Shown here piece by piece: positions 37,873-62,833 of a stretch of 64,000 nt of DNA. The stretch covers positions 1 through 64,000 of the forward strand of contig NZ_VKHR01000022.1 in assembly GCF_009663145.1 (NCBI RefSeq), read 5' to 3'. Made by a program: the position numbers and the translations under genes. Positions within the stretch are counted from its first letter, which is position 1; each line of letters starts with the position of its first letter. Origin of the DNA: Shewanella sp. TC10 (GTDB lineage: Bacteria > Pseudomonadota > Gammaproteobacteria > Enterobacterales > Shewanellaceae). The notes below the pieces were generated by a model. That model was given only the letters and a program-made list of their open reading frames with translations, made no database searches and was not told the DNA's origin.

Positions 37873-39108
37873 ATGCAAAATGCAAGTGCTCCTGCAAAAA
37901 GAATGTCAATTTTATTAGTGGAAGACACTTTTAGTGAGCGTTATTACATTGCTAGCCTTTTACAAAGCTTCGCACCTGAAGGCGTGGAGTTCATCATCAC
38001 TCAATGTGAAGACGGGCTTACGGCACTTGATACCTGTAAATTACATAATTTTGATTTGATCATTAGTGACTGGCGCATGCCGAATATGAGCGGAGTCGAT
38101 CTGTGTAAGCGTTTAAAAGAAGCCAACAACCCTGCATTTTTTATATTGTTAACCGGTAACGATAAAATTCAAGATATGGTTTATGCCATGGAAACAGGCG
38201 CCGACGACTACATAACTAAGCCGTTTCTTGCATCAGTGCTTAAAGTAAAAGTTCAGGCAGCAGTTCGATTGATCCAAGCCAAGCAGTCAATTATTGATAG
38301 CAAACAAAAGCTTGAGTCTATACTCAGTGATAAGCAAACAGAGCTAGAACAAGCCGCTTTACTTCAGCGTTCGCTATTACCGAAAGAAAACTTAGCCTTT
38401 AATGACTGGCATGTTAGACATTACTTTGAACCTGCAGCTGAACTCGCTGGTGACATATTCCAATGTTTTACCATTACTGATGATTGGATTGGCTTTTATG
38501 TCATTGACGTTTCAGGTCATGGGGCACGCTCTGCCATGCTGAGCTTTACTCTTGCTCAAGGCCTTTCTCCGCAGCGAATGGACTGGTTACTTCCAGCAGA
38601 AACCTTGATGCAAAGACTCAACCTCTTATTTGATGATCCTGCAAATCTCGGCCAATTCGCTACAGTGATTATTGGTAAAATTAATACTAAAACCCACCAA
38701 CTTCAGTTGTGTAATGCCGGTCATCCAATGCCTTTGGTCATCTCTAAGTATGAAATAAAAACACTCGATGTTCCCTCAGGACTGCCGATAGGCGTAGATA
38801 AAAACAGTGAATATAATACGGGTGAATATCAGCTTAATTCCTCAGAGCAATTACTATTATTTTCAGATGGCGTTTATGAAGTAAATCATCCTCAACATGG
38901 CATGTTTGGATTAGAGAGATTCAAACAACGCTGCTTTGAATCTAGAGAAATGCCAGCCAATAAATTTCTTGAACATTTAACTTATGTATTAAATCTGTGG
39001 AAACAAAATGAACCACAGGATGATATGTCGCTTTTGCTTTTTAGCGCCCCTAAAGACGATAGAGCAGACTTTGAAGTTGAAGACATGTTAGTTAATAGCA
39101 CTTTATAA
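37873..39108 (+). CDS. Response regulator fused to PP2C/SpoIIE-type phosphatase (SypE-like, kinase domain missing)
   Basis: 411 residues. The receiver domain covers about 10-130 with Asp66 (LIISDWRMPNMSG). A short coiled coil (about 135-165) and a PP2C phosphatase domain (about 170-395) follow. The metal-binding motifs are AGDIF, IDVSGHGARSA and LFSDGVYE. The phosphatase should dephosphorylate a STAS protein, reversing the action of an RsbW-like kinase. In V. fischeri SypE carries kinase, receiver and phosphatase in one chain. Here the kinase is a separate gene 219 bp downstream and the STAS substrate lies at 47602, beyond an insertion. The receiver is probably fed by the hybrid kinase at 34083. 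Confidence 0.88.
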   Translation: MQNASAPAKRMSILLVEDTFSERYYIASLLQSFAPEGVEFIITQCEDGLTALDTCKLHNFDLIISDWRMPNMSGVDLCKRLKEANNPAFFILLTGNDKIQDMVYAMETGADDYITKPFLASVLKVKVQAAVRLIQAKQSIIDSKQKLESILSDKQTELEQAALLQRSLLPKENLAFNDWHVRHYFEPAAELAGDIFQCFTITDDWIGFYVIDVSGHGARSAMLSFTLAQGLSPQRMDWLLPAETLMQRLNLLFDDPANLGQFATVIIGKINTKTHQLQLCNAGHPMPLVISKYEIKTLDVPSGLPIGVDKNSEYNTGEYQLNSSEQLLLFSDGVYEVNHPQHGMFGLERFKQRCFESREMPANKFLEHLTYVLNLWKQNEPQDDMSLLLFSAPKDDRADFEVEDMLVNSTL

Positions 39109-39162
39109 ATAGCCACTTTTAAATAGCTGTTTTTAAATAGCTAGTTTTAAATAGCTGTTTTT
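39107..39162. repeat. Four copies of a 14-bp direct repeat
   Basis: AAATAGC(T/C)(G/A)NTTTT units at 39107, 39121, 39135 and 39149, exactly 14 bp apart. The first overlaps the phosphatase stop codon. Probably a slippage product; each copy carries its own TAG. Confidence 0.8.
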
Positions 39163-39327
39163 CAATCACAGCGAATACAGATTAACCAGAGATGGCTCAG
39201 CAAGTGATGAGAAAAATGCTTCATATTTAAAAGTGGTCATATTAAAAATTAGTCATATTTCAAAGTAGTTTAGTTTAACAAATCAAAGCCATATATTTTG
39301 TCTTCATCAGGCTTTTAAGGATGAGTA

Positions 39328-39726
39328 ATGAACAACTTACAAATGAATATTTCATTGAATGAAGTAGCACCAGAAAAGGTTTACAACCAAATTGAAGCGT
39401 TTTTACTGACTCATGACATAGAAACACAGCTAAGGTTTAAAATCATTTTATGTATTTTAGAATCGGTAAATAATGTTATTCAACACTGCCCTGATAGCGC
39501 AGAGACAATCACTGTCATGATTCAAAACCAGCAAGATAATATCGTTATAGATATCCTAGATAACACTGACTTTGTAAAATTATCAGCACCTAAAAAATGC
39601 CCAGAGATTGATAAGCCCAATGGCAGGGGATTATGGATTATGGAGCAATGGATGGACCAAGTACAAAAACAAGCAACTGTGCTCGGCACACATTTACGAC
39701 TTTCTATGCAAAAGCAGCCAGCCTAA
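39328..39726 (+). CDS. RsbW-like serine kinase / anti-sigma-type ATPase
   Basis: 132 residues of the HATPase_c_2 family. The N-box ILESVNNVIQHC and the glycine-rich box PNGRGLWIM are intact, so ATP binding is likely; DILDNTDF supplies the D-x-x-D region. AAGGAtgag precedes the ATG. Its expected role is to phosphorylate the STAS protein (47602) on a serine, opposing the phosphatase at 37873. This corresponds to the N-terminal domain of SypE in V. fischeri but as a stand-alone protein. Everything from here to 47.4 kb downstream looks inserted. Confidence 0.85.
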   Translation: MNNLQMNISLNEVAPEKVYNQIEAFLLTHDIETQLRFKIILCILESVNNVIQHCPDSAETITVMIQNQQDNIVIDILDNTDFVKLSAPKKCPEIDKPNGRGLWIMEQWMDQVQKQATVLGTHLRLSMQKQPA

Positions 39727-44172: not shown

Positions 44173-44173
44173 C

Positions 44174-44874: not shown

Positions 44875-44890
44875 CTGTATATAAATACAA
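44875..44890. promoter_or_regulatory. LexA-like (SOS) box
   Basis: CTGTATATAAATACAA matches CTGT-N8-ACAG with an A+T-rich core at all but the last base. It lies about 300 bp beyond the first cassette, where the promoter of an SOS-controlled integron integrase would be expected. No gene follows it. Confidence 0.45.
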
Positions 44891-45467: not shown

Positions 45468-45783
45468 TTGATTTAGATTCTATTCAAATAGAAATCATTA
45501 GCTGACTAAAGCTGCTAACAAGTTTTGGAGCCACCAATTCAATACTTCATTTACATATACTCAATTTCAGTAGGCCATGGCCAGACTCACGCGATTTTCT
45601 CGATTGCCTCAATTCAAGTTAAGTATTCAATCCTTTAAAAGATTTTTTAATCTAGCAATAACAAACGAACCTGCGGGCTCAATGGCCTCCGTTGGAAGTG
45701 TCCGAATGCGTTGAGCTAATTTTCGTGATGGAGGCAGGACTGATGTGGTCAAGTAAATCTGTACACGCTTAGGGGAGTTATTA

Positions 45784-46928
<1,145 letters not shown>

Positions 46929-46980
46929 TTTTACACCAATTTATATTAAGGGGAGTTTACCCCATATCGGTGTACAGATT

Positions 46981-47403: not shown

Positions 47404-47474
47404 GCAATTTGCAAAACGCGATAACTAGCATCAAAACCGTGTTGCAAACAGCAATTAACCTCATTGCAAACAGC
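47404..47474 (+). promoter_or_regulatory. Cluster of three TTGCAAA-type enhancer-like motifs
   Basis: GCAATTTGCAAAA (47404-47416), and on the opposite strand GCTGTTTGCAA twice (47442-47452 and 47464-47474, 22 bp apart). They lie 64-134 bp upstream of the sigma-54 promoter at 47538, the usual range for an activator of the SypG type. Confidence 0.5.
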
Positions 47475-47553: not shown

Positions 47554-47601
47554 ATATCTAATTACAAGCACAAGAGCATCATTTCAATCAAGGAGCACGT
47601 T

Positions 47602-47997
47602 ATGAAATTTGAATTAAAAGTAGCGCAACATGCAAGTGTAGTCACTCTACCAATCAGAATGTTCATGGCGCACACACCGACATACAGAGCAGCACTTATT
47701 GACTATATCGATAGAGGACACACCCGTTTAGTTATCGATATGCAGCACCTTGAATATATTGATTCAAGCGGATTATCAGTATTGATATCAGCACGTAATC
47801 AAGCGCTCAATTACCAAGGCAATATTGTCTTACTGTCACCTAGCCCAGCAGTGAGATCACTCATTGAGCTAACACGTTTACATCATATTTTTGAAATTTT
47901 TGAAACCGAAAAATTAGCACTCGAATTCTTAAGACACAGCAGCATTGTTGAAGAATCTGATTTTGATAAACGTGTCATCGCCGATTTGGCTAGCTAA
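47602..47997 (+). CDS. STAS-domain anti-sigma-factor-antagonist protein (SypA-like)
   Basis: 131 residues from ATG 47602, which has AAGGAG 6-7 bases upstream; the longer frame from 47464 runs through the sigma-54 promoter. The STAS fold is clear: LVIDMQHLEYIDSSGLSVLISA with the conserved phosphorylatable serine at Ser55/Ser56. In V. fischeri SypA is controlled on Ser56 by SypE and permits biofilm formation after a late assembly step. Here the RsbW-like kinase (39328) and PP2C phosphatase (37873) are the expected writers and erasers. The gene opens the polysaccharide operon at the sigma-54 promoter 47538. Confidence 0.88.
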   Translation: MKFELKVAQHASVVTLPIRMFMAHTPTYRAALIDYIDRGHTRLVIDMQHLEYIDSSGLSVLISARNQALNYQGNIVLLSPSPAVRSLIELTRLHHIFEIFETEKLALEFLRHSSIVEESDFDKRVIADLAS

Positions 47998-48055: not shown

Positions 48056-49267
48056 ATGAAAACGATTAATACATTAATTTCAGTCGCTATGATCGCAAGT
48101 TTAACCGCTTGCGTTACCCCTTCGCAGCCAGCGCAGCAAGACGTTTGTGATTTAGAAAATCAACTAACAAGCTGTCATTATTTTGGTCAGCAAACACCTT
48201 ACAACCGAAAAGTAAGTGCTGTAATGTCAAACCACACAACCTTTCCAACAGCGCCAATATTTGGCAATAAAGAGATGGTTGTAGACACAGAGAATCAAGC
48301 TCTATCGTTATCTGTAGGTGACAAAATTTCGGTAAAAATCCTTAATGGTGAAGAATTTAGTAAAGATGTTGAAGTCGATGCCGATGGTAATATTTATCTA
48401 CCATACTTGCCTACTATTTCAGCAAAAGGATTAACACTTAAACAGCTAAATACTTATATAAACAAATTATTAATAGATGAAAATCTCATGCTTGCTCATG
48501 CTGTTCGCATTAGTATTTTACCCATCAGTTGGGCACCAATTGAAATTACCACTTCGGGTGCAGTGTTCGAGCCTGGGCAGCATATGATTAATAAAAAACT
48601 ACCAATAGAATTAAAAGATGATGGCAGTAACTATGCAGGTGACCAAGCCATTAAACGTAGTATTGGTGCAGCCGTTAAATCGTCGGGCGGAATTAGACCA
48701 GATGCAGATATCTCTGCAATAAAAGTCATCCGTAATGGACAGGTTTTCAATATGGATTTACGTGGTATGCTAACTGGTGAGAAAGTACCCAGCATGACAT
48801 TAATGGCTGGGGATCATGTCCATGTTCCATCAACACATTCTTTTAATGATCAACTCGCTAGACCATCGCAATTGACAGCACCAGGGATCAGGGTATTTAT
48901 GTCAAACTTAACACAGCCAGCAAGCTCAAATAGTCAATCAGCCGTCGACCGTGAGGCAACTCGTTTCCCATACGGTACACGTTTATTGAATGGAGCTATC
49001 GCAGCAAACTGTGTCGGTGGTGCTCAATCTACTAATGCGAGCCGTTACGTCATACTTGTCACTAAAAACCCACTTTCAAATGAAATTGATATTGTAGAAC
49101 GCTCAATTGATGGGTTAATCCAAAGTGCATGGAACGACCAATCTAACCCAGTGTTATTACCAGGCGATGGATTAGCTTGTTATGACTCTCGCGTTACCAA
49201 TATGCGTGAAATAGCCAGAACCGTAACAGAATTAGTGGTACCAACTACCCTTATCGGGTGGTTGTAA
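48056..49267 (+). CDS. Polysaccharide export lipoprotein (Wza/SypC-like)
   Basis: 403 residues. Lipoprotein signal with SLTAC (Cys19). The polysaccharide export domain includes LSVGDKISVKILNGEEFSKD and VEVDADGNIYLPYLPTISAKGLTLKQL. Downstream SLBB-like segments include ITTSGAVFEPGQHMI and GIRPDADISAIKVIRNGQ, with the family's AGDHVHVPS. It should form the outer-membrane export channel. AAAGGGA precedes the ATG; the STAS gene is 58 bp upstream and the chain-length gene 10 bp downstream, so all are one operon. Confidence 0.9.
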   Translation: MKTINTLISVAMIASLTACVTPSQPAQQDVCDLENQLTSCHYFGQQTPYNRKVSAVMSNHTTFPTAPIFGNKEMVVDTENQALSLSVGDKISVKILNGEEFSKDVEVDADGNIYLPYLPTISAKGLTLKQLNTYINKLLIDENLMLAHAVRISILPISWAPIEITTSGAVFEPGQHMINKKLPIELKDDGSNYAGDQAIKRSIGAAVKSSGGIRPDADISAIKVIRNGQVFNMDLRGMLTGEKVPSMTLMAGDHVHVPSTHSFNDQLARPSQLTAPGIRVFMSNLTQPASSNSQSAVDREATRFPYGTRLLNGAIAANCVGGAQSTNASRYVILVTKNPLSNEIDIVERSIDGLIQSAWNDQSNPVLLPGDGLACYDSRVTNMREIARTVTELVVPTTLIGWL

Positions 49268-49277
49268 GGAGCCAGCA

Positions 49278-50909
49278 ATGAGCCGAATTCATGATGAAGA
49301 AAAGACTCAGAACAGCACGGAAAGCCAAGCTAACGAAAGCCAAGCTAAAAATCCGGCGATTGAAAAAGCCATTGCTGACAGTCAAACAAATGCTCAATCT
49401 AAAAATAGTAAAATGAGCCCAAATGACACCGAAGAGCAAGACAGCGCTGAAGAAAGCTACAAAGTCGATAACAGCGAAGAACACAGCAGTTTTTCTGAAT
49501 TAGCTTATTTATATTGGATAAAACGTGCCACATTAGAAGGCAGCAAACTCACACCAAAACGTCGTAAACGTCTTTACCTTAAAACAGCCTTTGGCGCATT
49601 ACTGATAATTTGGCTTTTAGCTGGCTTATTTATCGTACTTGCGCCAACAAAATATGTGAGTAAGTGGGTGTTAATTTTACCTGGTGCTGCAGCTGGTTCT
49701 TCACTAAGCCTAGATAGTTTAGGCCAAGCCACTACATCAAGCATTTCGCCTTATATGAGCTCAGCAATCGATCCTCGACAAAATTACAAAGCACTTTCAA
49801 TGAGCACTTTATTGATGGAAAGTGCGGCGCATTATCTGGATTTACCCAAATCAGCAATAAGTAAGCCCAAGCTAAAATTACCCAGTCAAACAGGGTTAAT
49901 GGAGTTCAGCGTCAAAGCTGCGACGCCGGAAGCAGCACAAGAACAAGCCTGGGCTATGTATCGTTCATTACAAAATATTCTCAACGATCTTCGAGCTGAC
50001 GAAATTGGCTTGCGTGAGGTTGGCATTAAAAAAGGATTGGCTGGTTATTCTAGACGAGTCAAAGAAACCCAGAAACAGTTACTGGATTTCCAATCTGAAC
50101 GTGGGCTAGTCACGCTGGATCAATTCAAGGAACTTGCGGTAACAATTGAACGCCTAAGACACAGCAAAGTCACTATGCTAGCTGAACTAGAAGGATTAAA
50201 CGCAAGTTATTTCCTTTATGAAAACCACCTTGGGCTTACAGATGCCCAAGCGGCAATGTTGCTTAAACTAAACAATGACAAACTGTTTCAACAATTAGTT
50301 GAAAAACATAATACTGCCAATACGGTTTATATTGAAAATGCAGGCCGATTAGGTGCTCGTCACCCGGTATTAGTTTCTCTAAAAGCTGAGTTAGACAGTA
50401 TTTTAGATAGCATGAAAAAACGTTTTAATGTGGTGATTGGTTTTCAAGATGAAAAGTTATTGATGATGCTAACCCTTGACGATGTTGATGGTCGAGCTGA
50501 AATGATGCAAGAGTTCATTACTATCGCCTCTAACCGTAAAGCAGCGCAATCTGAAGTCGACACATTATCAACCCAAATAAACCAATGGGAACAACGTTTA
50601 CAATACAGCAATGATGATGCAGCTAAACTTGCCGACTTGCAAAGAGAGCATCAATTAGCGACTGCGGTATTAACTTCTGCAATGGCCAAAATGGATGTAG
50701 GTAAGTCCGATATTTATACCGCCTACCCAATGCTGCAATTATTATCTGCACCCAGCTTGCCATCTGCACCCGACAAGCTAGCCGTTTTACTGATTGCGTT
50801 CGGTGGATTGTGCGCCTCATTCATGTCACTAGTAGGATTAAGCATTTTATGGATTCGCAAACCATTACTGCGGAAAATGTTGACGAAAAAATCATCTACA
50901 ACTGCATAA
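49278..50909 (+). CDS. Polysaccharide chain-length/co-polymerase protein (Wzz/GumC type, no kinase)
   Basis: 543 residues. A long, charged, Ser/Gln/Asn-rich cytoplasmic N-terminus (1-75) precedes helix 1 (about 103-121). A periplasmic part with coiled coils (about 230-320 and 420-470) and a C-terminal helix (about 503-525) follow. No Walker kinase domain is attached, unlike Wzc. It would set polymer length and link the export channel to the synthesis machinery. GTAAGGAG lies just upstream. The downstream polymerase gene overlaps its 3' end by 61 bp. Confidence 0.82.
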   Translation: MSRIHDEEKTQNSTESQANESQAKNPAIEKAIADSQTNAQSKNSKMSPNDTEEQDSAEESYKVDNSEEHSSFSELAYLYWIKRATLEGSKLTPKRRKRLYLKTAFGALLIIWLLAGLFIVLAPTKYVSKWVLILPGAAAGSSLSLDSLGQATTSSISPYMSSAIDPRQNYKALSMSTLLMESAAHYLDLPKSAISKPKLKLPSQTGLMEFSVKAATPEAAQEQAWAMYRSLQNILNDLRADEIGLREVGIKKGLAGYSRRVKETQKQLLDFQSERGLVTLDQFKELAVTIERLRHSKVTMLAELEGLNASYFLYENHLGLTDAQAAMLLKLNNDKLFQQLVEKHNTANTVYIENAGRLGARHPVLVSLKAELDSILDSMKKRFNVVIGFQDEKLLMMLTLDDVDGRAEMMQEFITIASNRKAAQSEVDTLSTQINQWEQRLQYSNDDAAKLADLQREHQLATAVLTSAMAKMDVGKSDIYTAYPMLQLLSAPSLPSAPDKLAVLLIAFGGLCASFMSLVGLSILWIRKPLLRKMLTKKSSTTA

Positions 50910-52132
50910 GTTTTAGTTACTTATTTTGGTTGTTAGGTGCGTTATATGTCATTGCACCAGTGATTGCTTGGATTCTATTTTTACGCTTAATTTATAAAAA
51001 GCTCGCCCGCCAGCCGGTGTCGCGCATCAGCATTACCCATTATGTTTGGGTTTTAGGCATGTGGGTCATGTTAATTGCGTTGGTCGTCGGCCATCTGCAA
51101 TTTGGCCTTGGCACAGGCAAGCTCATCAAATCCTCTATCGGTTGGGCTAAAGGCTGGGCATTACTGGCAATATTTCCCCTTATTGGTTGTCTGAGTATCA
51201 GACCTGAAATCATTTATCGCGCCAGTTGCCATGTATGTAAACACACAGTAATTCTATTTCCCGTGTTTTTAATAGCTTGGAAAGCTGGGTTACCCAGTAC
51301 TTTATATGTTTCACCACTCAGTATTATTGGTGGACCAGGCCCTGAGTTTTTCAGCGTGAGTTTATACGAAATAGATCCCGGTAGCGGCGTGCCCCGCTGG
51401 CGCTTATTCACTCCATGGGCACCGGCTTTAGGCATGTTAGGTAATTTATATTTTATTTTTGCCTTACAAGAGAAAAACCAAAAATGGAAACGATGGGGTC
51501 TTGCTGGCAGCCTACTCATGATTTTAATATCGCAATCACGCTTGGCTATTGCATGTTATTTGGCCTTAATAGGTTTCTTTTCTACACTGCGCTTTGTGCG
51601 TTCGCCTTGGTTATATCTACTGCTCACTCCTGTCATGTTATTTGTCGGCGTTATTGGTGAAGCGACCATCACAAAAATTGAGCAAAGTATTTCAGCAGTA
51701 AAAGCGGCGCGTGCAGGTTCCACTCGTGTAAGACAATCATTAGCGGACATCGCTGTTGAGAGGTGGATGAACGAAGCCGTTTATTTCGGTCATGGTATTG
51801 TCGAACGTGGGCCTCACATGGTGGAATATATGCCAATTGGCTCACATCACACATGGTACGGATTACTGTTTGTCAAAGGACTTGTTGGGGCAATAGCGTT
51901 AGCCATTCCTATGTTAGTGACTTTCTTCGTTCTATTAAGCAAGTTATTCAGTAACCCATTAGCAAAAGTCGGCATGGCAATTTTACTGATGCTTGGTTTA
52001 TACACCTTTGGTGAGAACTTAGAAATTTTGGCTTACTTGTTTTGGCCTGGTTTGATTGTACTAGGCATGGCATTAAAGGCAGAAGAGCCGGAAGTGGTAT
52101 TTAATAAAGCTAAAGCGCTTGATGAGGTTTAA
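50849..52132 (+). CDS. O-antigen ligase/polymerase-like membrane protein
   Basis: About 427 residues from ATG 50849 (MDSQTITAEN…), inside the end of the previous gene; 50810 is another in-frame start. About ten hydrophobic helices are present, with a periplasmic loop holding RQSLADIAVERWMNEAVYFGHG and SHHTWYGLLFVKGLVGA. The 'H(H)TWYG…GLVG' pattern is typical of Wzy/WaaL-type O-antigen polymerases. The gene should polymerise the repeat unit. A strong terminator follows at 52157, closing the first polysaccharide transcript. Confidence 0.82.
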   Translation: MDSQTITAENVDEKIIYNCISFSYLFWLLGALYVIAPVIAWILFLRLIYKKLARQPVSRISITHYVWVLGMWVMLIALVVGHLQFGLGTGKLIKSSIGWAKGWALLAIFPLIGCLSIRPEIIYRASCHVCKHTVILFPVFLIAWKAGLPSTLYVSPLSIIGGPGPEFFSVSLYEIDPGSGVPRWRLFTPWAPALGMLGNLYFIFALQEKNQKWKRWGLAGSLLMILISQSRLAIACYLALIGFFSTLRFVRSPWLYLLLTPVMLFVGVIGEATITKIEQSISAVKAARAGSTRVRQSLADIAVERWMNEAVYFGHGIVERGPHMVEYMPIGSHHTWYGLLFVKGLVGAIALAIPMLVTFFVLLSKLFSNPLAKVGMAILLMLGLYTFGENLEILAYLFWPGLIVLGMALKAEEPEVVFNKAKALDEV

Positions 52133-53263: not shown

Positions 53264-53364
53264 GCTCTACTCCATGTGAAACTTGGTGTTTGGTTTGTAT
53301 TTTAATTGCTAGTGTTTAGATATAAGCATATGAAAAATAATCTTTTAGATGCAGCACTATTTAT

Positions 53365-53910
53365 TTATCGCCACTTGATTGAGCATCCCATACTGGCAGA
53401 CTGTTGCTGGGGTCCTTTGCCTGTTTCAGCTATCATTTTCATGGCATTGAGCAACTCAGGTGTGCGACTACTGTCATCTGCCATTTTGGCATCATCTAAT
53501 CTGCCTCGATATTGCAATTCGCCGTCTTTATTAAAACCAAAAAAATCTGGAGTACAAACAGCATCATAAAGTTTGCCAACACTTTGTTGTTCATCCACTA
53601 AGTAAGGAAATTCAAAGCTGTACTCTTTGATAAAAGCTTTCATATTTTCAGGTGAATCGGCAGGAACGGCTTGATAATCATTAGACATCACAGCTAACAC
53701 ATTTATGCCCTGCGACATTAATAGCTTAGTGTCCTCAGCAAGGCGATGACCAATACGTTTTACATAAGGGCAATGATTACAAATAAACATCACCAATAGC
53801 CCTTTATTGCCAAGGTGTTGGCTCATGGTAAATGATTCGCCAAATGGGTCTTTCAAAGTAAATTCGGGGGCTTTCCAGCCAAAATCACAAATAGGGGTAT
53901 CAAGTAACAC
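53365..53910 (-). CDS. Thioredoxin/AhpC-fold family protein
   Basis: 181 residues from a GTG start with TAGGAG nine bases upstream. The TlpA/AhpC-like opening APEFTLKDPFGESFTMSQ leads to the active-site-like CNHCPYVKRIGHRL (Cys-x-x-Cys). VLAVMSNDYQAVPADSPENM and TPDFFGFNKDGELQYRGRLDD match the widespread 'thioredoxin family protein' of marine gammaproteobacteria. It has no signal peptide, so it is probably cytoplasmic. Substrate unknown. Confidence 0.85.
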   Translation of the reverse strand: MLLDTPICDFGWKAPEFTLKDPFGESFTMSQHLGNKGLLVMFICNHCPYVKRIGHRLAEDTKLLMSQGINVLAVMSNDYQAVPADSPENMKAFIKEYSFEFPYLVDEQQSVGKLYDAVCTPDFFGFNKDGELQYRGRLDDAKMADDSSRTPELLNAMKMIAETGKGPQQQSASMGCSIKWR

Positions 53911-54973: not shown

Positions 54974-56317
54974 ATGCAAAACATCACCAAGCTTCAAGTT
55001 GAACAGAAGCCATCGCTGAATCAAAAGCTATCGCTTAATGAGATGCTAAGTCATGGCATTCGTTCATTAGGTAAAAACCTTTTGTGGTTAGCGAGCGCAC
55101 AGTTCAGTGGTCGAGTGGTGAGATTAGGCGCAAGTGTTATTACCGCACGTTTACTTACTCCTGAGATATTCGGTCAAGTTGCCATAGTGCTAACTTTGTT
55201 CGAACTAATCTGTACTCCAACAAGACGTATCACCTCAGCGGCGTTAATTCGCATGAATGATGCTGAATTTACCGATAATTTAGCCAGCGCCAATACCATC
55301 AACTTTGCATCTTGTATTAGTGCATTCGTATTAATGAGCTTAATCAGCTTGCCGTTAGCTTATTACTATCAAGATACCCAATTAATACTGCCTATACTGT
55401 TTGTTGCCAGTAGTTACTTATTGCTTCCATTTGGCATGTTGTACGCCACGGTTAATTTACGTAATAACAATATGCGTAAAGTGGCAAGTGCAAACCTTTG
55501 GCAAACAGTCGGTGACGGCGTGTTAACCGCAATATTGGCCCTAAGCGGGTTTGGTATTTGGGCAATCATAATCCCTAAAGTGGTCATGGTGTTTGTGTGG
55601 ATTGTTATCCATAAAAAATCAACTCCGTTACCAGCTTTTACCCAAGCGGTTTCGTTAGAACGCATTAAATCATTACTCACCTTTAGTGTTCCAGTTAGCT
55701 TAAGCGACTTAATCAACACCTTAAGACAGAGTATTGATTACCTAGTCATTGGTTACTTCATGGGTGTTGAAGCATTAGGTGTTTACTTCTTTGCTTACAA
55801 TGTGAGTTTAGGGGTGAGTTTAGGCTTGGTTCAAAGCTTTGGCACCGCTTTTTACTCACACCTTTGCAGTAATAAAGATGAAGCAAACAGCCAAGCAACA
55901 ATTCAATCAGCACAGCAAAAGTATCGCAATAGCGTTATTGCGATTACAGCAATCGCTGCGCCAATCATCATCTTACAAACCAGCTTAGCGCCACTGTATG
56001 TTCCATTTGTCTACGGTGAGCAATGGTTAAGCACTGATGCAATATCGGTTTTCGTTTACTTATGTTTAAGCGGCTTAGTTCGTCCAATGGCAGAGGCTGC
56101 AAGTCAGTCACTACTCGCTAATGGACATAGTCGTTTGAACTTCAATTTAAATATCGCCATCACCGCATTGCTAACTCTGGTAATCAGCATTGCAAGTCAG
56201 TTCGACTTAACCACAGTCGCATTGAGTGTGATGGTCACTTATTTAATCACTATGCCTTGGCTTTGCTGGTACAGCAGCCGCATCTCATTTAATCGATCAA
56301 CTGTTAAACACAGTTAA
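54974..56317 (+). CDS. Polysaccharide flippase (Wzx-like, MATE/MOP superfamily)
   Basis: 447 residues with about 12-14 membrane helices. Family opening: GKNLLWLASAQFSGRVVRLGASVITARLLTPEIFGQVAI, then RRITSAALIR. Later VPVSLSDLINTLRQSIDYLVIGYFMGVEALGVYFFAYN is the classic second-half signature. It should flip lipid-linked repeat units across the inner membrane. AAAGGTAG precedes the ATG. It is the first gene after the sigma-54-like promoter and is followed by a glycosyltransferase 10 bp downstream. Confidence 0.9.
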   Translation: MQNITKLQVEQKPSLNQKLSLNEMLSHGIRSLGKNLLWLASAQFSGRVVRLGASVITARLLTPEIFGQVAIVLTLFELICTPTRRITSAALIRMNDAEFTDNLASANTINFASCISAFVLMSLISLPLAYYYQDTQLILPILFVASSYLLLPFGMLYATVNLRNNNMRKVASANLWQTVGDGVLTAILALSGFGIWAIIIPKVVMVFVWIVIHKKSTPLPAFTQAVSLERIKSLLTFSVPVSLSDLINTLRQSIDYLVIGYFMGVEALGVYFFAYNVSLGVSLGLVQSFGTAFYSHLCSNKDEANSQATIQSAQQKYRNSVIAITAIAAPIIILQTSLAPLYVPFVYGEQWLSTDAISVFVYLCLSGLVRPMAEAASQSLLANGHSRLNFNLNIAITALLTLVISIASQFDLTTVALSVMVTYLITMPWLCWYSSRISFNRSTVKHS

Positions 56318-56327: not shown

Positions 56328-57386
56328 ATGACTCCAAGAATCTCTGTAGTAATGCCTGTATATAACGTTGAGAAGTTTGTTAAAGCGGCAATCGAGTCTG
56401 TACTACACCAGACATTTGATAACTTTGAATTACTGATTATCGATGATCGAGGTGATGATCGCAGTATTCAGATTTGTAAGCAGTTTATTGGCGACCCACG
56501 AGTTCATATTATTCGTCACGCTAAAAATAAAGGCTTAGCCGCTGCGCGTAATACCGGTATCCGTCATGCATTAGGAGAGTTTGTTGCTTTTATCGATTCA
56601 GACGATTTATGGCACTCAGAAAAGCTAGCTCGCCATGTAGAGCACTTAGATAGTGACAGCCAAATTGGTTTAAGCTTTTCTCGTTCAAGCTTTATCGATT
56701 ACGACGGTAAATTTATTGATTTTTATCAAATGCCTAAACTAAATGATATCGATGCAGCTCACTTACTTTGTCGTAACCCTGTTGGCAACGGTAGCGCTCC
56801 AGTTATTCGTCGCAGCACATTAAATGACATCCGATACCAATCAATGAGCACAGCTGAACGCTATAGCTGCTATTTCGATGAAACTTTCCGTCAATCGGAA
56901 GACATTGAATGTTGGTTACGCATTGCAGCTACCACATCTTGGAAAATCGAAGGTTTACCTGAGCCTTTAACCTATTACCGCTTAAATCATGGTGGTTTAT
57001 CTGCAAACTTGATGAAGCAGTATGCTTCATGGGAAAAGATGATTGAAAAAGCTCGTGATTTTGCCCCTACATTACTCGCACGTCATGAAAAAGCAGCTAG
57101 AGCGTACCAATTACGCTACCTTTCAAGACAAGCGATTCGTTTAGGTGATGGTAAAGCAGCGGTTGAATTAGTGAACAAAGCAATTTCTACTTCACCAAGC
57201 ATTTTACAGGCTGAAACAGGCCGTACATTGACTACTTTAATTGCAGCATATGCACAATGGGTCATGCCAGCTTGGGGTTATATCGTTATCGAGGGAGTGG
57301 GACAAAAATGCATTAGCATCATGCAAAAAATGCGCATATCCCGCGACGGTGTCACCAGCGATTTCATGCAAGATAACAAACTTTAA
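56328..57386 (+). CDS. Family 2 glycosyltransferase
   Basis: 352 residues. The GT2 (GT-A fold) core lies at the N-terminus: ISVVMPVYNVEKFVKAAIESVLHQTF, LLIIDDRGDD (nucleotide site), GLAAARNTGI and the metal-binding FIDSDDLWH. Glu-rich QSEDIECWLRIA supplies the likely general base. No membrane helix is obvious except a weak C-terminal one. It adds one sugar of the repeat unit; donor and linkage are not predictable. It forms a two-gene unit with the flippase. Confidence 0.9.
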   Translation: MTPRISVVMPVYNVEKFVKAAIESVLHQTFDNFELLIIDDRGDDRSIQICKQFIGDPRVHIIRHAKNKGLAAARNTGIRHALGEFVAFIDSDDLWHSEKLARHVEHLDSDSQIGLSFSRSSFIDYDGKFIDFYQMPKLNDIDAAHLLCRNPVGNGSAPVIRRSTLNDIRYQSMSTAERYSCYFDETFRQSEDIECWLRIAATTSWKIEGLPEPLTYYRLNHGGLSANLMKQYASWEKMIEKARDFAPTLLARHEKAARAYQLRYLSRQAIRLGDGKAAVELVNKAISTSPSILQAETGRTLTTLIAAYAQWVMPAWGYIVIEGVGQKCISIMQKMRISRDGVTSDFMQDNKL

Positions 57387-57653: not shown

Positions 57654-59621
57654 ATGAAAACAAGCCAAATTAGTAATACTCACGATCACACTCCACTTTC
57701 TATCATAATGTTTGATTGGATTATCGCGTTTTATGTGATGGCTTTAGCAAGTCCAATTCTAATGTTTAAAGTCATTACATTAGCCTGTTCAAAACATTCT
57801 ATTTTCGAAACCCTCTACATTCATGTAGGCGATAAAGAAGTGGAGATTCGCCTTTTCTCTCAAGGACGCTTTAAGGCGTTACCTTTGTTTTATAGTGTCC
57901 TAAAAGGCGATATCGGTTTATTAGGAAGTGCATTTGAATATGCGGTATTTGATGCGACTCAAAATAATAGCCGACCAGGAATATTATCTGTTGAACAGAT
58001 GCAACGTCGTATGGGGATTCAACATGTAAAGGTAACTTCAGATAAGCCAACAAATTTGATGAGTTACATTGCCAACATTGTTAAATGTCTATTCAGTAAG
58101 CTGGTCGTTGTCTCTACTCAATTGAATTACCCGACTCAATTTAACTTGTTAGGGGTCAATATTGATAACAACACCATGAGCGAAAGTGTTGATTTGTTAA
58201 TCCGTTCATCTCTGTCAGCGACCACCAAACAGTTTGCCTTTGTGAATGCTGATTGCCTTAACCTTGCTGCAACCAATAACAATTATCGCAATACCGTCAA
58301 TCAGTGTGACCAAGTGTTTGCAGATGGTAGCGGAATACGTATCGCCTGTCAGTTACATCATATTGGTCTTAAAGATAATGTGAACGGCACTGATATGTTA
58401 CCTCTGCTGTGTGAGCAAGCTGCAGCCCAAGGTATTAGCTTATTTTTCTTAGGCGGTAAACAAGGCACTTCAGACCAGGCCGCTGCAAATCTTATTAAGC
58501 AATTTCCGACCCTTAATATTGTCGGTTGTCATCACGGTTTTTTAAACCAAGATAATGAACAACAAGTGATTGAGCAAATCAACCAATCCGGAGCTCAGAT
58601 TTTGCTAGTTGGTATGGGCGCCCCAAAACAAGACCAATGGATAAATGATCATAAAGCAGAACTAAATGTAGGCGTAGCGGTTGGTGTCGGTGGATTGTTT
58701 GATTTCTTTGCTAATAACGTCTCAAGAGCACCTGTTGCCGTTAGACAGGTCGGTATGGAATGGGTATGGAGACTAGCCCAAGAACCTAAAAGAATGTGGA
58801 AACGTTACGTTGTGGGTAATCCGTTATTCCTTGCCCGTGTGTTGAAGCAAAAACGTTCAAGTAATATGCCTGTGCACTCTGCGAATACAAGCAGGGCTAA
58901 TACAAGCAGCGCTAATTCAAACCACTCTGCTACAAGCAAACAGCCACAGCCGATGTTATCGGGGTTAGGCCAAACCAACACACAGAATAAACGTCGTTGG
59001 TATTTCTTTGGCATCAAATGTGGTCAATTCGCAAAACGCACATTTGATATTGTCGCCGCTAGCATTTTGCTAATTCTACTAGCACCACTATTCGCATTTA
59101 CAGCCTTGAGTATTCGTATTGAATCAAAAGGAGCCATCTTTTTCTCACAAACTCGTAGCGGCCTAAATAACCAACCTTTTACCATGTGGAAGTTTCGCTC
59201 AATGTATATCGATGCTGAAGCAAGACTTGAAAAAATAAAACAAAACAATGAGATGCAAGGTGGCGTGTTATTTAAAATGAAAAAAGATCCTCGCATTACT
59301 AGCGTAGGAAAACTCATCCGTAAAGCTTCAATCGATGAATTGCCACAACTTTGGAACGTATTAATGGGTGATATGTCACTAGTTGGCCCAAGACCTGCAC
59401 TACCTAGTGAAGTAAGCCAATATCAGTTAAGTGACCGTCGCAGATTGGGAGTTAAACCTGGTATTACTTGTATTTGGCAAGTAAGCGGACGTTCAGATAT
59501 TCCTTTTGATAAGCAGGTAGAGCTAGACATTGATTATATCTACCAGCAATCACTTAAAGAAGATATCGCTCTGTTATTGAAAACTATTCCAGCAGTACTT
59601 TTGGCGCGTGGCGCCTACTAG
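57654..59621 (+). CDS. Three-part protein: degenerate sugar-transferase + WecG/TagA glycosyltransferase + priming sugar-phosphate transferase
   Basis: 655 residues from ATG 57654 (GAGG 6 bases upstream). Segment 1 (about 15-150): one membrane helix and LPLFYSVLKGDIGLLGS, recognisable as a shortened PglC/WcaJ-type domain without catalytic residues. Segment 2 (about 160-400): GT26 WecG/TagA domain with FVNADCLNLA, VFADGSGI, NGTDMLPLL, LVGMGAPKQDQWI and EPKRMWKRY. A Ser/Asn-rich linker (about 405-440) follows. Segment 3 (about 450-655): complete bacterial sugar transferase with a helix (ASILLILLAPLFAFTAL), MWKFRSMYIDAE, IDELPQLWNVLMGDMSLVGPRP and GITCIWQVSGRSDI. It thus joins priming and the second glycosyl transfer. 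Confidence 0.88.
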   Translation: MKTSQISNTHDHTPLSIIMFDWIIAFYVMALASPILMFKVITLACSKHSIFETLYIHVGDKEVEIRLFSQGRFKALPLFYSVLKGDIGLLGSAFEYAVFDATQNNSRPGILSVEQMQRRMGIQHVKVTSDKPTNLMSYIANIVKCLFSKLVVVSTQLNYPTQFNLLGVNIDNNTMSESVDLLIRSSLSATTKQFAFVNADCLNLAATNNNYRNTVNQCDQVFADGSGIRIACQLHHIGLKDNVNGTDMLPLLCEQAAAQGISLFFLGGKQGTSDQAAANLIKQFPTLNIVGCHHGFLNQDNEQQVIEQINQSGAQILLVGMGAPKQDQWINDHKAELNVGVAVGVGGLFDFFANNVSRAPVAVRQVGMEWVWRLAQEPKRMWKRYVVGNPLFLARVLKQKRSSNMPVHSANTSRANTSSANSNHSATSKQPQPMLSGLGQTNTQNKRRWYFFGIKCGQFAKRTFDIVAASILLILLAPLFAFTALSIRIESKGAIFFSQTRSGLNNQPFTMWKFRSMYIDAEARLEKIKQNNEMQGGVLFKMKKDPRITSVGKLIRKASIDELPQLWNVLMGDMSLVGPRPALPSEVSQYQLSDRRRLGVKPGITCIWQVSGRSDIPFDKQVELDIDYIYQQSLKEDIALLLKTIPAVLLARGAY

Positions 59622-59629
59622 GAGATGTT

Positions 59630-61024
59630 ATGCAGGCTATCGTATTTGCAAATAGAAACGGAAATGAACTAGCTCCTCTAAATCAACACTATTGCCCTGC
59701 TTTATTGCCTGTGGCTAATAAAGCACTCGTTGAATATACCTTAGAGGATTTAGCTGCAGCAGGCATCACTGACGTAAAAATGGTTATCAGTCATGAAGCC
59801 CAAAAGATTGAGTCTCAAATTGGCAATGGCGAGCAATGGGGCTTAACCCTTGACTACTTTTTAAGTAAACCAGAAGAGCAAGTTGATAGCGTTCTGTCAC
59901 GTATGAATATTGATAAAACCGTACAAGCATTAGTTGTTCGTGGCGATATATTACGTAGCCCTTGTCTAGCTCGTTTCATTGAGTTTTCACGCTTAATGCC
60001 ATCGAAATTTGTCCACGCCAAAATGGACCAACGTAACCCTGCCATGATGATGCTGCCAGCAGGTTGGAAGCATAACCAGTTATTAAACTGGCCGTTAGAA
60101 ACCACAGACGTTGACCATAACAACAGCGTTGCTCAGGTTATTCATGGTGAATGCTTCTACATTGATAGCTTAGCCGCATATGTAAAAGCATCTGACTATG
60201 TCATCAACAGCCAAGATTTCTGTGTAAAAGGCCGCGCAATCAATACCAAAAACCCACAACAAAATTTAGTGGTGGAAGCGCAATGTCAGTTACCAGATTT
60301 ATCTGAAACCCAGGCATTTGGTGCTATTGGAGAGTTCACTAAAGTATCAAATAAAGCGCAGTTAGCTCAGGGAATTGTGGTTGGAGAATATTGCTTCATT
60401 GAAGACAGTCAAATCCAAGACAGTATTATTTTACCTAATACTTACGTGGGGCCGCAGTTAAGCGTCGAAAATAAAATTATCTCTCAAGATTTAATCATCG
60501 ACCCACAAACCAACAGCTGGAGCAAAGTTGAAGATCAAAACTTAATTGCCAAATCGACCCAAGAAACGAGCAATTACAACGGGGTTTTTCAACGCGCAAT
60601 ATTACTTATGTTGTACGTATTGTTGTCACCACTGTTGCTGAGCCTTTTCCTAGGTTCGTTAATCCTCAAGCCACGCAAACCTATTGTGTCTGAAACAGTG
60701 ATTAATAATAACAAACAACCCGTTAAAGCTCACAAGTTCAATATAAGTAATCCAAGCTTTGCCCTGCTACCGCAAGTTTGGTTAGTGGTAAAAGGCGATT
60801 TACAGCTATTTGGTGCGTCGACCCAGTATCAAAGCAAACAAGATGGCTCAACCACTTATGGAGTTTATGGGCCCGTACAACTTAATTTTAATAAAGATAC
60901 CCCAATTGAAGAAGTCCAAATGGTGGAAATGGAGTTTGAGCACTCTAAAAAGCCAATGTATTTAATCAATATGCTTCAACATCAATTTGATAAAACCAAT
61001 ACCACTGTTGAGATTAAAAGCTAA
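59630..61024 (+). CDS. Nucleotidyltransferase-like protein with degenerate C-terminal sugar-transferase domain
   Basis: 464 residues. The N-terminal third has the sugar-nucleotidyltransferase fold (IVFANRNGNELAPLNQHYCP, then LLPVANKALVEYTLEDLAAAGI). The essential GGxGTRL loop is ANRNGNEL and the PKP lysine is lost, so catalysis is doubtful. A short left-handed beta-helix part (GIVVGEYCFIEDSQIQDSII) follows. Then comes a membrane helix (LLMLYVLLSPLLLSLFLGSL) and a remnant LLPQVWLVVKGDLQLFGAS that mirrors the LPQLWNVLMGDMSLVGP of the upstream gene. It starts 8 bp after that gene (GGAG). A regulatory or scaffold role with the priming transferase is a guess. Confidence 0.75.
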   Translation: MQAIVFANRNGNELAPLNQHYCPALLPVANKALVEYTLEDLAAAGITDVKMVISHEAQKIESQIGNGEQWGLTLDYFLSKPEEQVDSVLSRMNIDKTVQALVVRGDILRSPCLARFIEFSRLMPSKFVHAKMDQRNPAMMMLPAGWKHNQLLNWPLETTDVDHNNSVAQVIHGECFYIDSLAAYVKASDYVINSQDFCVKGRAINTKNPQQNLVVEAQCQLPDLSETQAFGAIGEFTKVSNKAQLAQGIVVGEYCFIEDSQIQDSIILPNTYVGPQLSVENKIISQDLIIDPQTNSWSKVEDQNLIAKSTQETSNYNGVFQRAILLMLYVLLSPLLLSLFLGSLILKPRKPIVSETVINNNKQPVKAHKFNISNPSFALLPQVWLVVKGDLQLFGASTQYQSKQDGSTTYGVYGPVQLNFNKDTPIEEVQMVEMEFEHSKKPMYLINMLQHQFDKTNTTVEIKS

Positions 61025-61075: not shown

Positions 61076-61468
61076 ATGAAAACGATTATTACTTATGGCA
61101 CTTTTGATTTATTTCACTTTGGTCACGTTAGATTGCTCGAGCGTCTTAGCAAAATGTGCGATCAGTTAATTGTCGGTGTATCTACTGACGAATTTAACGC
61201 CCTTAAAGGTAAAGCAGCATTCTTTAGCTATGAACAACGAAGTGAAATTATCGCTGCTTGTAAATATGTCACTAAAGTCATCCCTGAACAAAATTGGCAG
61301 CAAAAATCTGCAGATATTGAGCAATATGATGTCGATGTATTTGCTATTGGTGATGATTGGGAAGGTCAATTTGACCATCTAAATAGTCAATGTGAAGTAT
61401 TGTATCTAACCAGAACAGATGACATCTCAACCACTGAAATTAAAAATAACCTTGCAGTAGGTGTTTAG
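61076..61468 (+). CDS. tagD: Glycerol-3-phosphate cytidylyltransferase
   Basis: 130 residues, same size as TagD of Bacillus. Cytidylyltransferase motifs: ITYGTFDLFHFGHVRLLERL (HxGH-type HFGH) and the C-terminal LTRTDDISTTEIK (RTxxISTT). It makes CDP-glycerol from CTP and glycerol 3-phosphate. CAAGGAG stands before the ATG. It is paired with the glycerophosphotransferase gene 114 bp downstream, so the polymer is probably decorated or built with glycerol phosphate. Confidence 0.9.
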   Translation: MKTIITYGTFDLFHFGHVRLLERLSKMCDQLIVGVSTDEFNALKGKAAFFSYEQRSEIIAACKYVTKVIPEQNWQQKSADIEQYDVDVFAIGDDWEGQFDHLNSQCEVLYLTRTDDISTTEIKNNLAVGV

Positions 61469-61582
61469 CAGTTTGATTTGAGCTTTATTTATTTTGGCTC
61501 TTTGACCAAAGCTGGTCGCGTAAGTAAAAAATCATGCTATCTTTGTATTTAAAGGATTTTTTTATTGTCACGGAGGCGATAC

Positions 61583-62833
61583 ATGAGCCAATTCATTTTT
61601 AATTGCATTAAATTTGTAGTGACTCAGAGCCTGTATTTTATTGCAGGTTTTAGCCCTCGCTCCCGTAAAGCTGTAATGGGGTGTTATAAAAACAAATTTG
61701 CCGATAACAGTAAGTATCTATTTTTACATTGGCAACGAGCGATGACCATAAGGGCCATTTGGGTAAGTGGCGATAAAGACGTCGTTAAAACATTAAATCT
61801 GCAAGGGTTTGAAGCTTATTATCGCTGGAGTTTAAAAGGCATTTATCACGCTTTAACGGCTAAATATTATGTATATAACAGCTATATTGGTGACGTTAAT
61901 CAATATTTTGCTCGCGGCGCTATCAAAATTAACCTGTGGCATGGCTCGCCACTGAAAAGAATCGAATATGATATTAACAACGGCCCACTTCTTAAGGTAT
62001 ATCACCCAAAAACACTTAGGGATAAATTTGTTTCTAGCACCCAATTTCATCAACAAAAAATTCGCCCAGATCATATGGTTGCGCCAAGTGATCTCGTCGC
62101 TCAGTTATTTGCTGGGGCGTTCAGAATTAACCCGCAACAGATGATATTAAGTGGTAACCCACGTACAGATTACTTCAAGCGTTATCCGCAGCAATCAAAC
62201 AGTATTAAAAACGATTTAAAGCTATCGCTCATCGATGAATTGAAACAAATCAATCAAGTAAAGCAAGTTATACTGTACGCCCCTTCTTGGCGTGATAACT
62301 CAGCCTTGGCTAAAACCAGCAAGTCCGTTGGTAGTAATCAGTACTCCACAGCAATTGATTTTAAAGCTCTGTCAGCATCCTTAGTCAAAAATCAGCAACT
62401 CTTTTTACTGAGATTACACCCTAATGAAGCAGAGCTAGCTCAAGCGATGGTGAACCACCCTAACATACTGAATATTTCAGACTGGCAAGACACCTACGAA
62501 ATCATCAATGACATTGATTTACTTATTACTGATTATTCATCGTTATACATAGATATGCTGCAAACCAAAGCTGATATTGTGTTCTTTCAGTTCGACCAGC
62601 AAGAATATCAATCCGATAGCAGACAATGTTATCCCTATGCAGATAACCTGCCCATGGCAGGAGAAGTGCTAACAGAGTACCACCAGCTGGCAGATTATCT
62701 TGAAAATCTGAGTCAAAACCCGAATATCATTTCTTTAGCAAATAAAAAAAATAGAGCTGAGTTAGCACAGCTCTATTGGCAATATCAACATAATGAATGC
62801 TTCAAACAATTAGATAAACTCGTCAGCGCATAA
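61583..62833 (+). CDS. CDP-glycerol glycerophosphotransferase family protein (TagB/TagF-like)
   Basis: 416 residues from ATG 61583, with CGGAGG 6 bases upstream (TTG 61565 would be too early). Family motifs: INLWHGSPLKRIEYD (His of the active site), SGNPRTDYF, VILYAPSWRD, LLRLHPNEAELA and LLITDYSSLYIDML with the conserved DYSS. The enzyme transfers glycerol phosphate from CDP-glycerol. Gram-positive bacteria use it for teichoic acids; in Gram-negatives it modifies capsules or O-antigens. It is last in the operon and a long 8-bp repeat begins 3 bp after its stop. Confidence 0.88.
   Translation: MSQFIFNCIKFVVTQSLYFIAGFSPRSRKAVMGCYKNKFADNSKYLFLHWQRAMTIRAIWVSGDKDVVKTLNLQGFEAYYRWSLKGIYHALTAKYYVYNSYIGDVNQYFARGAIKINLWHGSPLKRIEYDINNGPLLKVYHPKTLRDKFVSSTQFHQQKIRPDHMVAPSDLVAQLFAGAFRINPQQMILSGNPRTDYFKRYPQQSNSIKNDLKLSLIDELKQINQVKQVILYAPSWRDNSALAKTSKSVGSNQYSTAIDFKALSASLVKNQQLFLLRLHPNEAELAQAMVNHPNILNISDWQDTYEIINDIDLLITDYSSLYIDMLQTKADIVFFQFDQQEYQSDSRQCYPYADNLPMAGEVLTEYHQLADYLENLSQNPNIISLANKKNRAELAQLYWQYQHNECFKQLDKLVSA

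What the first reader, a model, noticed from the sequence alone, without database searches (positions are those of the whole stretch)
57654..61024. Three sugar-transferase-like domains, two degenerate, in adjacent genes
The motif LPQLWNVLMGDMSLVGP of the intact priming transferase (end of the 57654 product) reappears as LPLFYSVLKGDIGLLGS at the start of the same protein and as LLPQVWLVVKGDLQLFGAS at the end of the 59630 product. Both have a preceding membrane helix but lack the catalytic region. The copies may be membrane anchors or pseudo-enzyme partners that assemble a priming complex.
Basis: partly seen in the sequence, partly recalled or inferred. Interest (0 to 1): 0.7.

Follow-up and report, generated by a model that had tools for sequence, protein, structure and literature searches.

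The report
Dead priming-transferase domains in EPS genes
Two neighbouring genes of a Shewanella exopolysaccharide operon each carry a catalytically dead copy of the membrane enzyme that starts sugar-chain building, and evolution has kept these dead copies, so they probably help assemble or control the live enzyme.

Summary
The 57654 product is pseudo-PGT / WecG-TagA glycosyltransferase / active priming phosphoglycosyl transferase (PGT). The 59630 product is pseudo-nucleotidyltransferase / beta-helix / pseudo-PGT. Both degenerate segments are true monotopic-PGT homologues: profile-profile probability 98.2% and 94.0% against the active domain (controls 0.1%), and fold searches whose only strong hits are PglC and WbaP. 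They keep the membrane helix and core but lack about 40 catalytic residues. The nucleophilic Asp is present in 42 of 42 active domains and 0 of 42 of either copy. They are not decay: the two genes are adjacent in 41 of 41 named Shewanella loci, the segments evolve under purifying selection, and homologues with the same deletion occur in other gammaproteobacterial families, several above Pfam's cut-off. Upstream genes encode a Syp-like switch (STAS, phosphatase, ATPase); in a genome of another class the order is PGT, 59630 homologue, STAS. Best reading: conserved pseudo-PGT modules that anchor and assemble the EPS initiation complex, the 59630 protein being a scaffold or regulator. Complex formation and regulation are inferred, not shown.

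The parts
57690..58133 (+). p1N: catalytically dead monotopic PGT domain (residues about 13-160 of the 57654 product), hydrophobic helix with Ser-Pro break, motif FKALPLFYSVLKGDIGLLGS
   Evidence: hhalign 98.2% to the active PGT; Foldseek/VIA: PglC Z 14.2, next unrelated 3.5 (model pLDDT 58.8); Asp 0/42, Glu 1/42
58146..58853 (+). WecG/TagA/CpsF glycosyltransferase domain (second-sugar transferase)
   Evidence: PF03808, 206.4 bits against cut-off 27.4; NGTD or NGSD motif in 42 of 42
59019..59618 (+). active priming PGT domain, Asp-Glu dyad intact (ASIDELPQLW)
   Evidence: PF02397 230.1 bits; dyad in 42 of 42
59630..60229 (+). pseudo-nucleotidyltransferase domain of the 59630 product (p2): catalytic Arg replaced by Glu, catalytic Lys lost, metal Asp kept
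   Evidence: PF00483 35.8 bits against 21.2; residue census over 42 sequences; alignment with an intact NTase of the same genome
60230..60529 (+). left-handed beta-helix (hexapeptide) domain of p2
   Evidence: LbH_EIF2B 27.1 bits, below its cut-off of 54, and other sub-threshold hexapeptide models; p2 family profile matches eIF2B gamma chains over positions 148-301
60572..60964 (+). p2C: second dead monotopic PGT domain (residues about 315-445 of p2), motif PSFALLPQVWLVVKGDLQLFGAS
   Evidence: hhalign 94.0%; Foldseek/VIA: PglC Z 10.1, next 3.2 (model pLDDT 74.3); Asp 0/42, Glu 0/42
61076..61468 (+). glycerol-3-phosphate cytidylyltransferase (TagD-like)
   Evidence: TIGR01518 169.5 bits against 165.4
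61565..62833 (+). CDP-glycerol glycerophosphotransferase family protein
   Evidence: PF04464 165.6 bits; homologue in 31 of 31 stretches
56328..57386 (+). GT2 glycosyltransferase, same operon
   Evidence: PF00535; homologue in 30 of 31 stretches
54974..56317 (+). Wzx-type flippase
   Evidence: PF13440; homologue in 30 of 31 stretches, a half-length match in the other
48056..52132 (+). export protein (48056), BexC/CtrB-like chain-length protein (49278), Wzy-like membrane protein (50810)
   Evidence: PF02563, TIGR01010 and a sub-threshold Wzy_C match
47599..47997 (+). single-domain STAS protein (SypA-like); start at the ATG inside the longer listed ORF
   Evidence: PF01740 69.1 bits; tblastn match in 26 of 31 stretches
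37873..39726 (+). response regulator with PP2C/SpoIIE phosphatase (37873) and HATPase_c_2 kinase-like protein (39328): partner-switch module
   Evidence: PF07228/PF00072; PF13581

Best explanation
The two degenerate segments are pseudo-PGT domains: duplicated monotopic phosphoglycosyl transferases that lost the catalytic insert and Asp-Glu dyad but kept the membrane helix and the core fold. SHOWN (by sequence and prediction): homology, fold, loss of catalytic residues, long conservation, linkage. INFERRED: in protein 1 the pseudo-PGT holds the WecG/TagA domain on the membrane next to the fused active PGT, so that the first sugar-phosphate and the second sugar are added to undecaprenyl phosphate in one place. 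In protein 2 a pseudo-PGT anchors a dead nucleotidyltransferase/beta-helix, which acts as a non-catalytic scaffold or sensor of the initiation complex, probably by pairing with PGT or pseudo-PGT domains of protein 1. Sub-claims: conserved pseudo-PGT modules 0.95; membrane anchoring of partners 0.75; physical assembly of an initiation complex with protein 1 0.5; regulatory role of protein 2 0.4.
For: Profile-profile and fold evidence. Residue census over 42 loci. dN/dS of the pseudo-PGT domains 0.056-0.129, where computable, against 0.216-0.455 for the p1 linker. p1 and p2 adjacent in 41 of 41 named Shewanella loci and in 31 of 31 unnamed same-genus stretches; the two sets overlap, at least 20 of the 41 sharing a contig length with the 31. 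Genus sample: 32 of 60 genomes have both, 28 have neither at the thresholds used (the one extra weak p1N hit, G026, lies in a FabZ-like frame). A PF02397 scan of seven genomes finds half-domain matches (profile 2-56 and/or 88-178, middle missing) in four of them (G463, G531, G571, G677), all in p1- or p2-type frames and over the cut-off. Whole p1 architecture also in G571 and G677. Where the WecG domain is not fused to an active PGT (L151, L152) it still carries the pseudo-PGT, which favours membrane holding; TagA is proposed to be activated by membrane association (PMC6493773, passages). PGT, p2 and STAS genes are consecutive in L167.
Against: No interaction was measured or modelled. The p1N model is of low confidence (pLDDT 58.8). 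The PF02397 scan does not pick up the degenerate segments of the window's own genome, G156 or G819; p2C of L138 is not reported by Pfam and that of L167 scores 13.7 bits. In the f25 genomes (L138, L156) protein 1 lacks the pseudo-PGT, so a WecG-PGT fusion can do without it. In G571 and G677 p2 lies on another contig than p1. Of ten p2-bearing outgroup genomes searched, only four gave a pseudo-PGT/WecG protein (G463, G531, G571, G677); G593, G819 and G733 gave a WecG match alone and G547 none (draft genomes). In G733 the p2-like frame ends before any pseudo-PGT. The Pro of the helix break is at the expected column in only 24 of 42 p2C domains, and p2C is further eroded in L124.
Confidence: 0.6

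Rival explanations
1. The pseudo-PGTs are only passive membrane anchors (a re-entrant helix with its cap) with no contact to the PGT and no regulatory role.
For: The hydrophobic helix is kept; p1N as a whole is variable (mean column identity 33%); the split proteins L151 and L152 carry the segment without an active PGT in the same chain.
Against: A helix alone would suffice as an anchor, yet the cytoplasmic fold downstream of the deletion is kept, with invariant or near-invariant G-P-x-Q-L and P-x-E-E residues in p2C and dN/dS about 0.1.
Confidence: 0.27
2. Cryptic catalysis: the segments still transfer or bind substrate with shifted residues, or p2 is still a nucleotidyltransferase.
For: The metal Asp of the NTase is kept in 42 of 42; p1N of L152 keeps the GPRP motif.
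Against: Catalytic Arg and Lys of the NTase are lost in 42 of 42; the PGT Asp is lost in 42 of 42 in both copies together with about 40 surrounding residues.
Confidence: 0.06
3. Relics: decaying duplications without function.
For: One of 31 same-genus copies of p2 is broken (L085) and p2C is further reduced in L124.
Against: Purifying selection; p2 is a single open frame in the other 30 of 31 same-genus stretches and in 41 of 41 named loci (sets overlap); homologues in other families and one other class.
Confidence: 0.03
4. The motif similarity is chance between unrelated membrane proteins.
For: Pfam alone is below cut-off in the window (E 0.011).
Against: Homologous segments in L150-L153 reach 27.1-58.8 bits against a cut-off of 27; hhalign and fold searches.
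Confidence: 0.01

Closest known systems
Monotopic phosphoglycosyl transferases (PglC, WbaP; PF02397)
   Same: Predicted fold, hydrophobic re-entrant-type helix, LPQL/GD/G core; only strong structural neighbours
   Different: Catalytic Asp-Glu dyad and about 40 surrounding residues are missing, so these are homologues but not PGT enzymes
Bifunctional monoPGTs (Bi-PGT; class as described in PMC10942596, passage)
   Same: p1 is an active PGT fused to another functional domain (WecG)
   Different: p1 carries in addition a second, dead PGT domain at the other end
WecB/TagA/CpsF glycosyltransferases (TagA, PMC6493773)
   Same: PF03808 domain; TagA is proposed to be activated on the membrane (passages)
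   Different: Here sandwiched between a dead and an active PGT, or, in L151 and L152, behind a dead PGT alone
eIF2B gamma/epsilon and GMPPA-type non-catalytic nucleotidyltransferase/beta-helix proteins
   Same: The p2 family profile matches eIF2B epsilon best in the PDB (E 5e-25, NTase part) and eIF2B gamma over positions 148-301; catalytic residues lost
   Different: Bacterial, with a membrane pseudo-PGT at the C-terminus; sensing or allostery not shown (that eIF2B and GMPPA are non-catalytic, and GMPPA's role, are recalled, from no call)
Vibrio fischeri syp locus (SypA/SypE/SypF/SypG)
   Same: STAS protein, response-regulator phosphatase, hybrid sensor kinase and sigma-54 regulator near a Wzx/Wzy-type EPS cluster
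   Different: Phosphatase and ATPase are separate genes here, whereas SypE is a kinase/phosphatase (PMC10120452, passages); that syp has no p2 homologue is recalled, not tested; glycerophosphate genes are present here
EpsW-EpsZ of Myxococcus xanthus (PMC12802240, abstract)
   Same: Precedent for a non-catalytic partner that activates an initiating PGT, proposed to do so by promoting its dimer
   Different: EpsW is a response regulator, not a pseudo-PGT

Membership tests
Monotopic PGT superfamily, as an enzyme (p1N, p2C) | monotopic PGT fold | tested here: met
   VIA-align Z 14.2 (p1N) and 10.1 (p2C) to PglC; next unrelated chains 3.5 and 3.2; p1N model pLDDT only 58.8
Monotopic PGT superfamily, as an enzyme (p1N, p2C) | Pro break in the re-entrant membrane helix | tested here: inconclusive
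   41 of 42 in p1N; 24 of 42 at that column in p2C; active 42 of 42
Monotopic PGT superfamily, as an enzyme (p1N, p2C) | catalytic Asp-Glu dyad | tested here: not met
   Asp 0/42 and 0/42 (one p2C row gapped there), Glu 1/42 and 0/42; control active domains 42/42
Monotopic PGT superfamily (C-terminal domain of p1) | full PF02397 domain with dyad | tested here: met
   230.1 bits, profile 1-178; dyad 42/42
WecB/TagA/CpsF glycosyltransferases (middle of p1) | PF03808 above cut-off | tested here: met
   206.4 bits against 27.4
Sugar-1-phosphate nucleotidyltransferases (front of p2) | catalytic Arg of GxGTR and Lys of PKP | tested here: not met
   Arg to Glu 42/42; Lys 0/42; register checked against an intact NTase of the same genome; the motif itself is recalled
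eIF2B/GMPPA-like pseudo-NTase with beta-helix (front of p2) | sugar-nucleotide or sugar-phosphate sensing | not testable with these tools
   Only sequence similarity
Syp-like partner-switch-controlled EPS locus | STAS + PP2C phosphatase + HATPase kinase + sigma-54 regulator | tested here: met
   PF01740, PF07228, PF13581, PF00158 in the window; STAS in 26 of 31 stretches, several cut short
Syp-like partner-switch-controlled EPS locus | STAS phosphorylation state controls EPS | not testable with these tools
   none

The most novel reading that the evidence does not exclude
The 59630-type protein is the missing effector of SypA-like STAS switches: the STAS protein, set by the phosphatase/ATPase pair, binds the dead nucleotidyltransferase/beta-helix, and its pseudo-PGT then pairs in the membrane with the active PGT (or the p1 pseudo-PGT) and switches EPS priming on or off after translation, perhaps gated by nucleotide-sugar level.
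Probability: 0.15. Interest if true: 0.85.

Novelty: new variant of a known kind. Interest (0 to 1): 0.62.

Why it matters
In the lists returned by the searches run here (open-licence PMC full text only, lists capped, e.g. 20 of 417 papers, judged mostly by title and start of abstract) I saw no description of a conserved dead monotopic PGT domain, or of a protein joining a dead nucleotidyltransferase and a dead PGT. If confirmed, the core PGT fold is also a non-catalytic membrane docking module. It would offer a concrete candidate for how STAS switches act on EPS synthesis below transcription: for V. fischeri SypA that target is stated to be unknown (PMC10120452, passages).

Tried and rejected
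Chance motif: rejected by hhalign with negative controls and by fold search. Decay: rejected by dN/dS and wide conservation. A common origin of p1N and p2C: each is a clade in the ML tree (SH-aLRT/UFBoot 69.5/85 and 51.2/93), but p1N+p2C together are not; two active sequences fall among them; weak signal on 148 sites, left open. That tree used 15 of the 42 Shewanella loci per group and hand-cut outgroup segments; one active sequence (L198) was dropped because no dyad motif was found.

G026 hit to p1N: a match inside a FabZ-like frame (FabZ is my reading of the sequence). G099, G322 and the listed short class and phylum hits match only the NTase part. G733 (L157) was left out of the alignments: its p2-like frame stops before a pseudo-PGT. 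PADLOC on five inserted genes: nothing. Literature for the Shewanella locus: nothing relevant in the lists (six papers, none). The sequence-network survey of monoPGTs (recalled as a PNAS 2021 paper) was not found under the id I gave.

Limits: the pattern-based genome-contig scan uses two peptides of the NTase part, so absence outside Shewanella there means little. at E 1e-40 sees only close p1N relatives (it misses the window's own p1N). Active and WecG profiles in hhalign had 22 rows, taken from every second of 41 loci plus the window. Some dS values exceed 1 or saturate. Stretches fetched often end before the regulator genes, so counts of STAS, HATPase and SpoIIE are lower bounds. The fold lists show no family beyond monoPGTs as a strong match; that proves no absence.
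Full report
WHAT IS THERE. The window lies in a genome whose close relatives are Shewanella: all 41 loci that a p2-profile scan of named genomes returned are Shewanella. The EPS operon runs STAS (47599), export protein, BexC-like protein, Wzy-like protein, Wzx flippase, GT2, p1 (57654-59621), p2 (59630-61024), TagD-like (61076) and glycerophosphotransferase (61565). p1 is a WecG/TagA/CpsF domain (206.4 bits) and a full C-terminal Bac_transf (230.1 bits), preceded by about 160 residues that Pfam does not recognise. p2 is an NTP_transferase-like domain (35.8 bits), sub-threshold hexapeptide matches and a C-terminal stretch with a sub-threshold Bac_transf match.

THE TWO DEGENERATE SEGMENTS ARE PGT DOMAINS. 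Profiles of p1N and p2C (42 rows each) against the active domain (22 rows): 98.2% (E 4.4e-14) and 94.0% (E 1.4e-7); p1N against p2C 96.7% (E 4.6e-10); both against the WecG domain (22 rows) 0.1%. AlphaFold2 models of the isolated segments (pLDDT 58.8 for p1N, 74.3 for p2C), searched against the PDB, give only monotopic PGTs as strong hits: PglC and WbaP, E 5e-5 to 4e-4 for p1N and 1e-4 to 4e-3 for p2C, next unrelated hit at 1.2 and 1.9. VIA-align Z is 14.2 (rmsd 3.3, 143 residues) and 10.1 (rmsd 5.0, 146 residues) to PglC, next 3.5 and 3.2. The p2 family profile also finds PglC by sequence (E 5e-8, positions 317-471).

WHAT IS MISSING AND WHAT IS KEPT. Over 42 loci (window plus 41), the nucleophilic Asp is in 42/42 active domains, 0/42 p1N and 0/42 p2C; the Glu in 42/42, 1/42 (L123) and 0/42. 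The stretch from the Arg of FRSM to the dyad is 44-46 residues in active domains, 5-7 in p1N and 7-9 in p2C, with 0 in L124, whose p2C has lost more of the fold. The Gly of the GD motif is kept in 41/42 and 42/42. The helix-breaking Pro, shown for PglC to shape the re-entrant helix (PMC6133551, passages), is in 41/42 p1N and 24/42 p2C at that column. In p2 the NTase catalytic Arg is Glu in 42/42 and the catalytic Lys is absent in 42/42, while the metal Asp is kept in 42/42 (register checked against an intact NTase of the same genome; the canonical motif itself is recalled). The six outgroup p2 sequences aligned also lack both the Arg and the Lys.

NOT DECAY. dN/dS, where dS could be computed: p1N 0.056-0.129 (6 of 8 pairs), p2C 0.082-0.097 (4 of 8), pseudo-NTase 0.039-0.088 (7 of 8), beta-helix 0.040-0.227 (6 of 8), WecG 0.058-0.099 (7 of 8), active PGT 0.048-0.117 (8 of 8), p1 linker 0.216-0.455 (7 of 8); several dS exceed 1. 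p1 and p2 are adjacent in 41 of 41 named loci and in 31 of 31 unnamed same-genus stretches, one of them with a broken p2 (L085). The sets overlap: at least 20 of the 41 share a contig length with the 31. In the genus sample 32 of 60 genomes carry both and 28 neither, at the thresholds used.

OUTSIDE SHEWANELLA. In the order sample the only long p2 match outside the genus is G156 (295 genomes); its family has 2 of 75. The class sample of 369 gives, besides the window's own, five full-length matches (G463, G531, G571, G593, G677), one running into a contig end (G547) and one partial (G733); the phylum sample adds one genome of another class (G819). In L151 and L152 a separate pseudo-PGT/WecG protein exists, with Bac_transf at 51.6 and 58.8 bits against a cut-off of 27; the p2 C-termini of L150-L153 score 27.1-38.3 bits. 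Not all do: L138 is not reported and L167 has 13.7 bits. A PF02397 scan of seven genomes finds half-domain matches in four, only in p1- and p2-type frames, and none for the degenerate segments of the other three, the window's genome included. G571 and G677 have the whole p1 architecture, on another contig than p2. In f25 genomes p1 lacks the pseudo-PGT while p2 keeps a C-terminal segment alignable to p2C. In the ML tree p1N and p2C each form one clade across families, with modest support, so both look older than Shewanella.

REGULATORS. Upstream lie a sigma-54 response regulator, a hybrid sensor kinase with Hpt, a response-regulator/SpoIIE phosphatase and a HATPase_c_2 protein: with the STAS protein, a Syp-like partner switch. 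By tblastn STAS is found in 26 of 31 stretches, HATPase in 15 and SpoIIE in 9, many stretches ending before these genes. In L151 p2 is followed by the phosphatase and an HATPase gene; in L155 the phosphatase is the second gene after p2. In L167 the order is active PGT, p2, STAS. Against a tight link: no STAS, phosphatase, HATPase or sigma-54 hit near p2 in L150, L152, L153 or L154; no HATPase hit beside the STAS gene in L081, L138 or L156.

HOW IT PROBABLY WORKS. TagA is proposed to be activated by membrane association (PMC6493773, passages). A pseudo-PGT in front of the WecG domain would hold it there; that it is kept when the WecG protein is not fused to an active PGT (L151, L152) fits this. 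WbaP is a homodimer (PMC10942596, passages), and a non-catalytic partner can activate a PGT (EpsW-EpsZ, PMC12802240, abstract), so pairing between dead and live PGT domains is plausible but untested. p2 as a whole looks like a non-catalytic scaffold or sensor; the best PDB sequence match of its family profile is an eIF2B subunit.

VERDICT.

Noticed in passing
window 39727-47463: About 7.7 kb with a transposase pair (45784-46928; rve/HTH_21, IS3-type by recall) and DUF4240/DUF4262 genes separates the HATPase gene from the STAS gene; in relative L139 the two lie about 0.6 kb apart.
   Followed up: partly
window 52607-53910: Minus-strand nitroreductase and AhpC/TSA-type genes sit between the Wzy-like and Wzx genes inside the EPS operon.
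   Followed up: no
L085: The only broken p2 copy among 31 same-genus stretches: two open pieces, with p1 still open.
   Followed up: no
window 61076-61468 and loci L056-L086: The glycerophosphotransferase is found in 31 of 31 stretches but the TagD-like cytidylyltransferase in only 24 of 31 (one of those, L069, only 40% identical and about 13 kb away), so some strains may get CDP-glycerol elsewhere or use another donor.
   Followed up: no
L167 6847-9405: In a genome of another class, active PGT, p2 homologue and STAS gene are consecutive with gaps of 2 and 13 bases.
   Followed up: yes
L157 470-2715: In G733 a p2-like frame without a pseudo-PGT lies beside a sigma-54 response regulator 49% identical to the window's.
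   Followed up: no
window 24630-27272 and 30866-32377: Large family-3 glycoside hydrolase with PA14 domain and a Wzi-type capsule assembly protein near the regulators.
   Followed up: no
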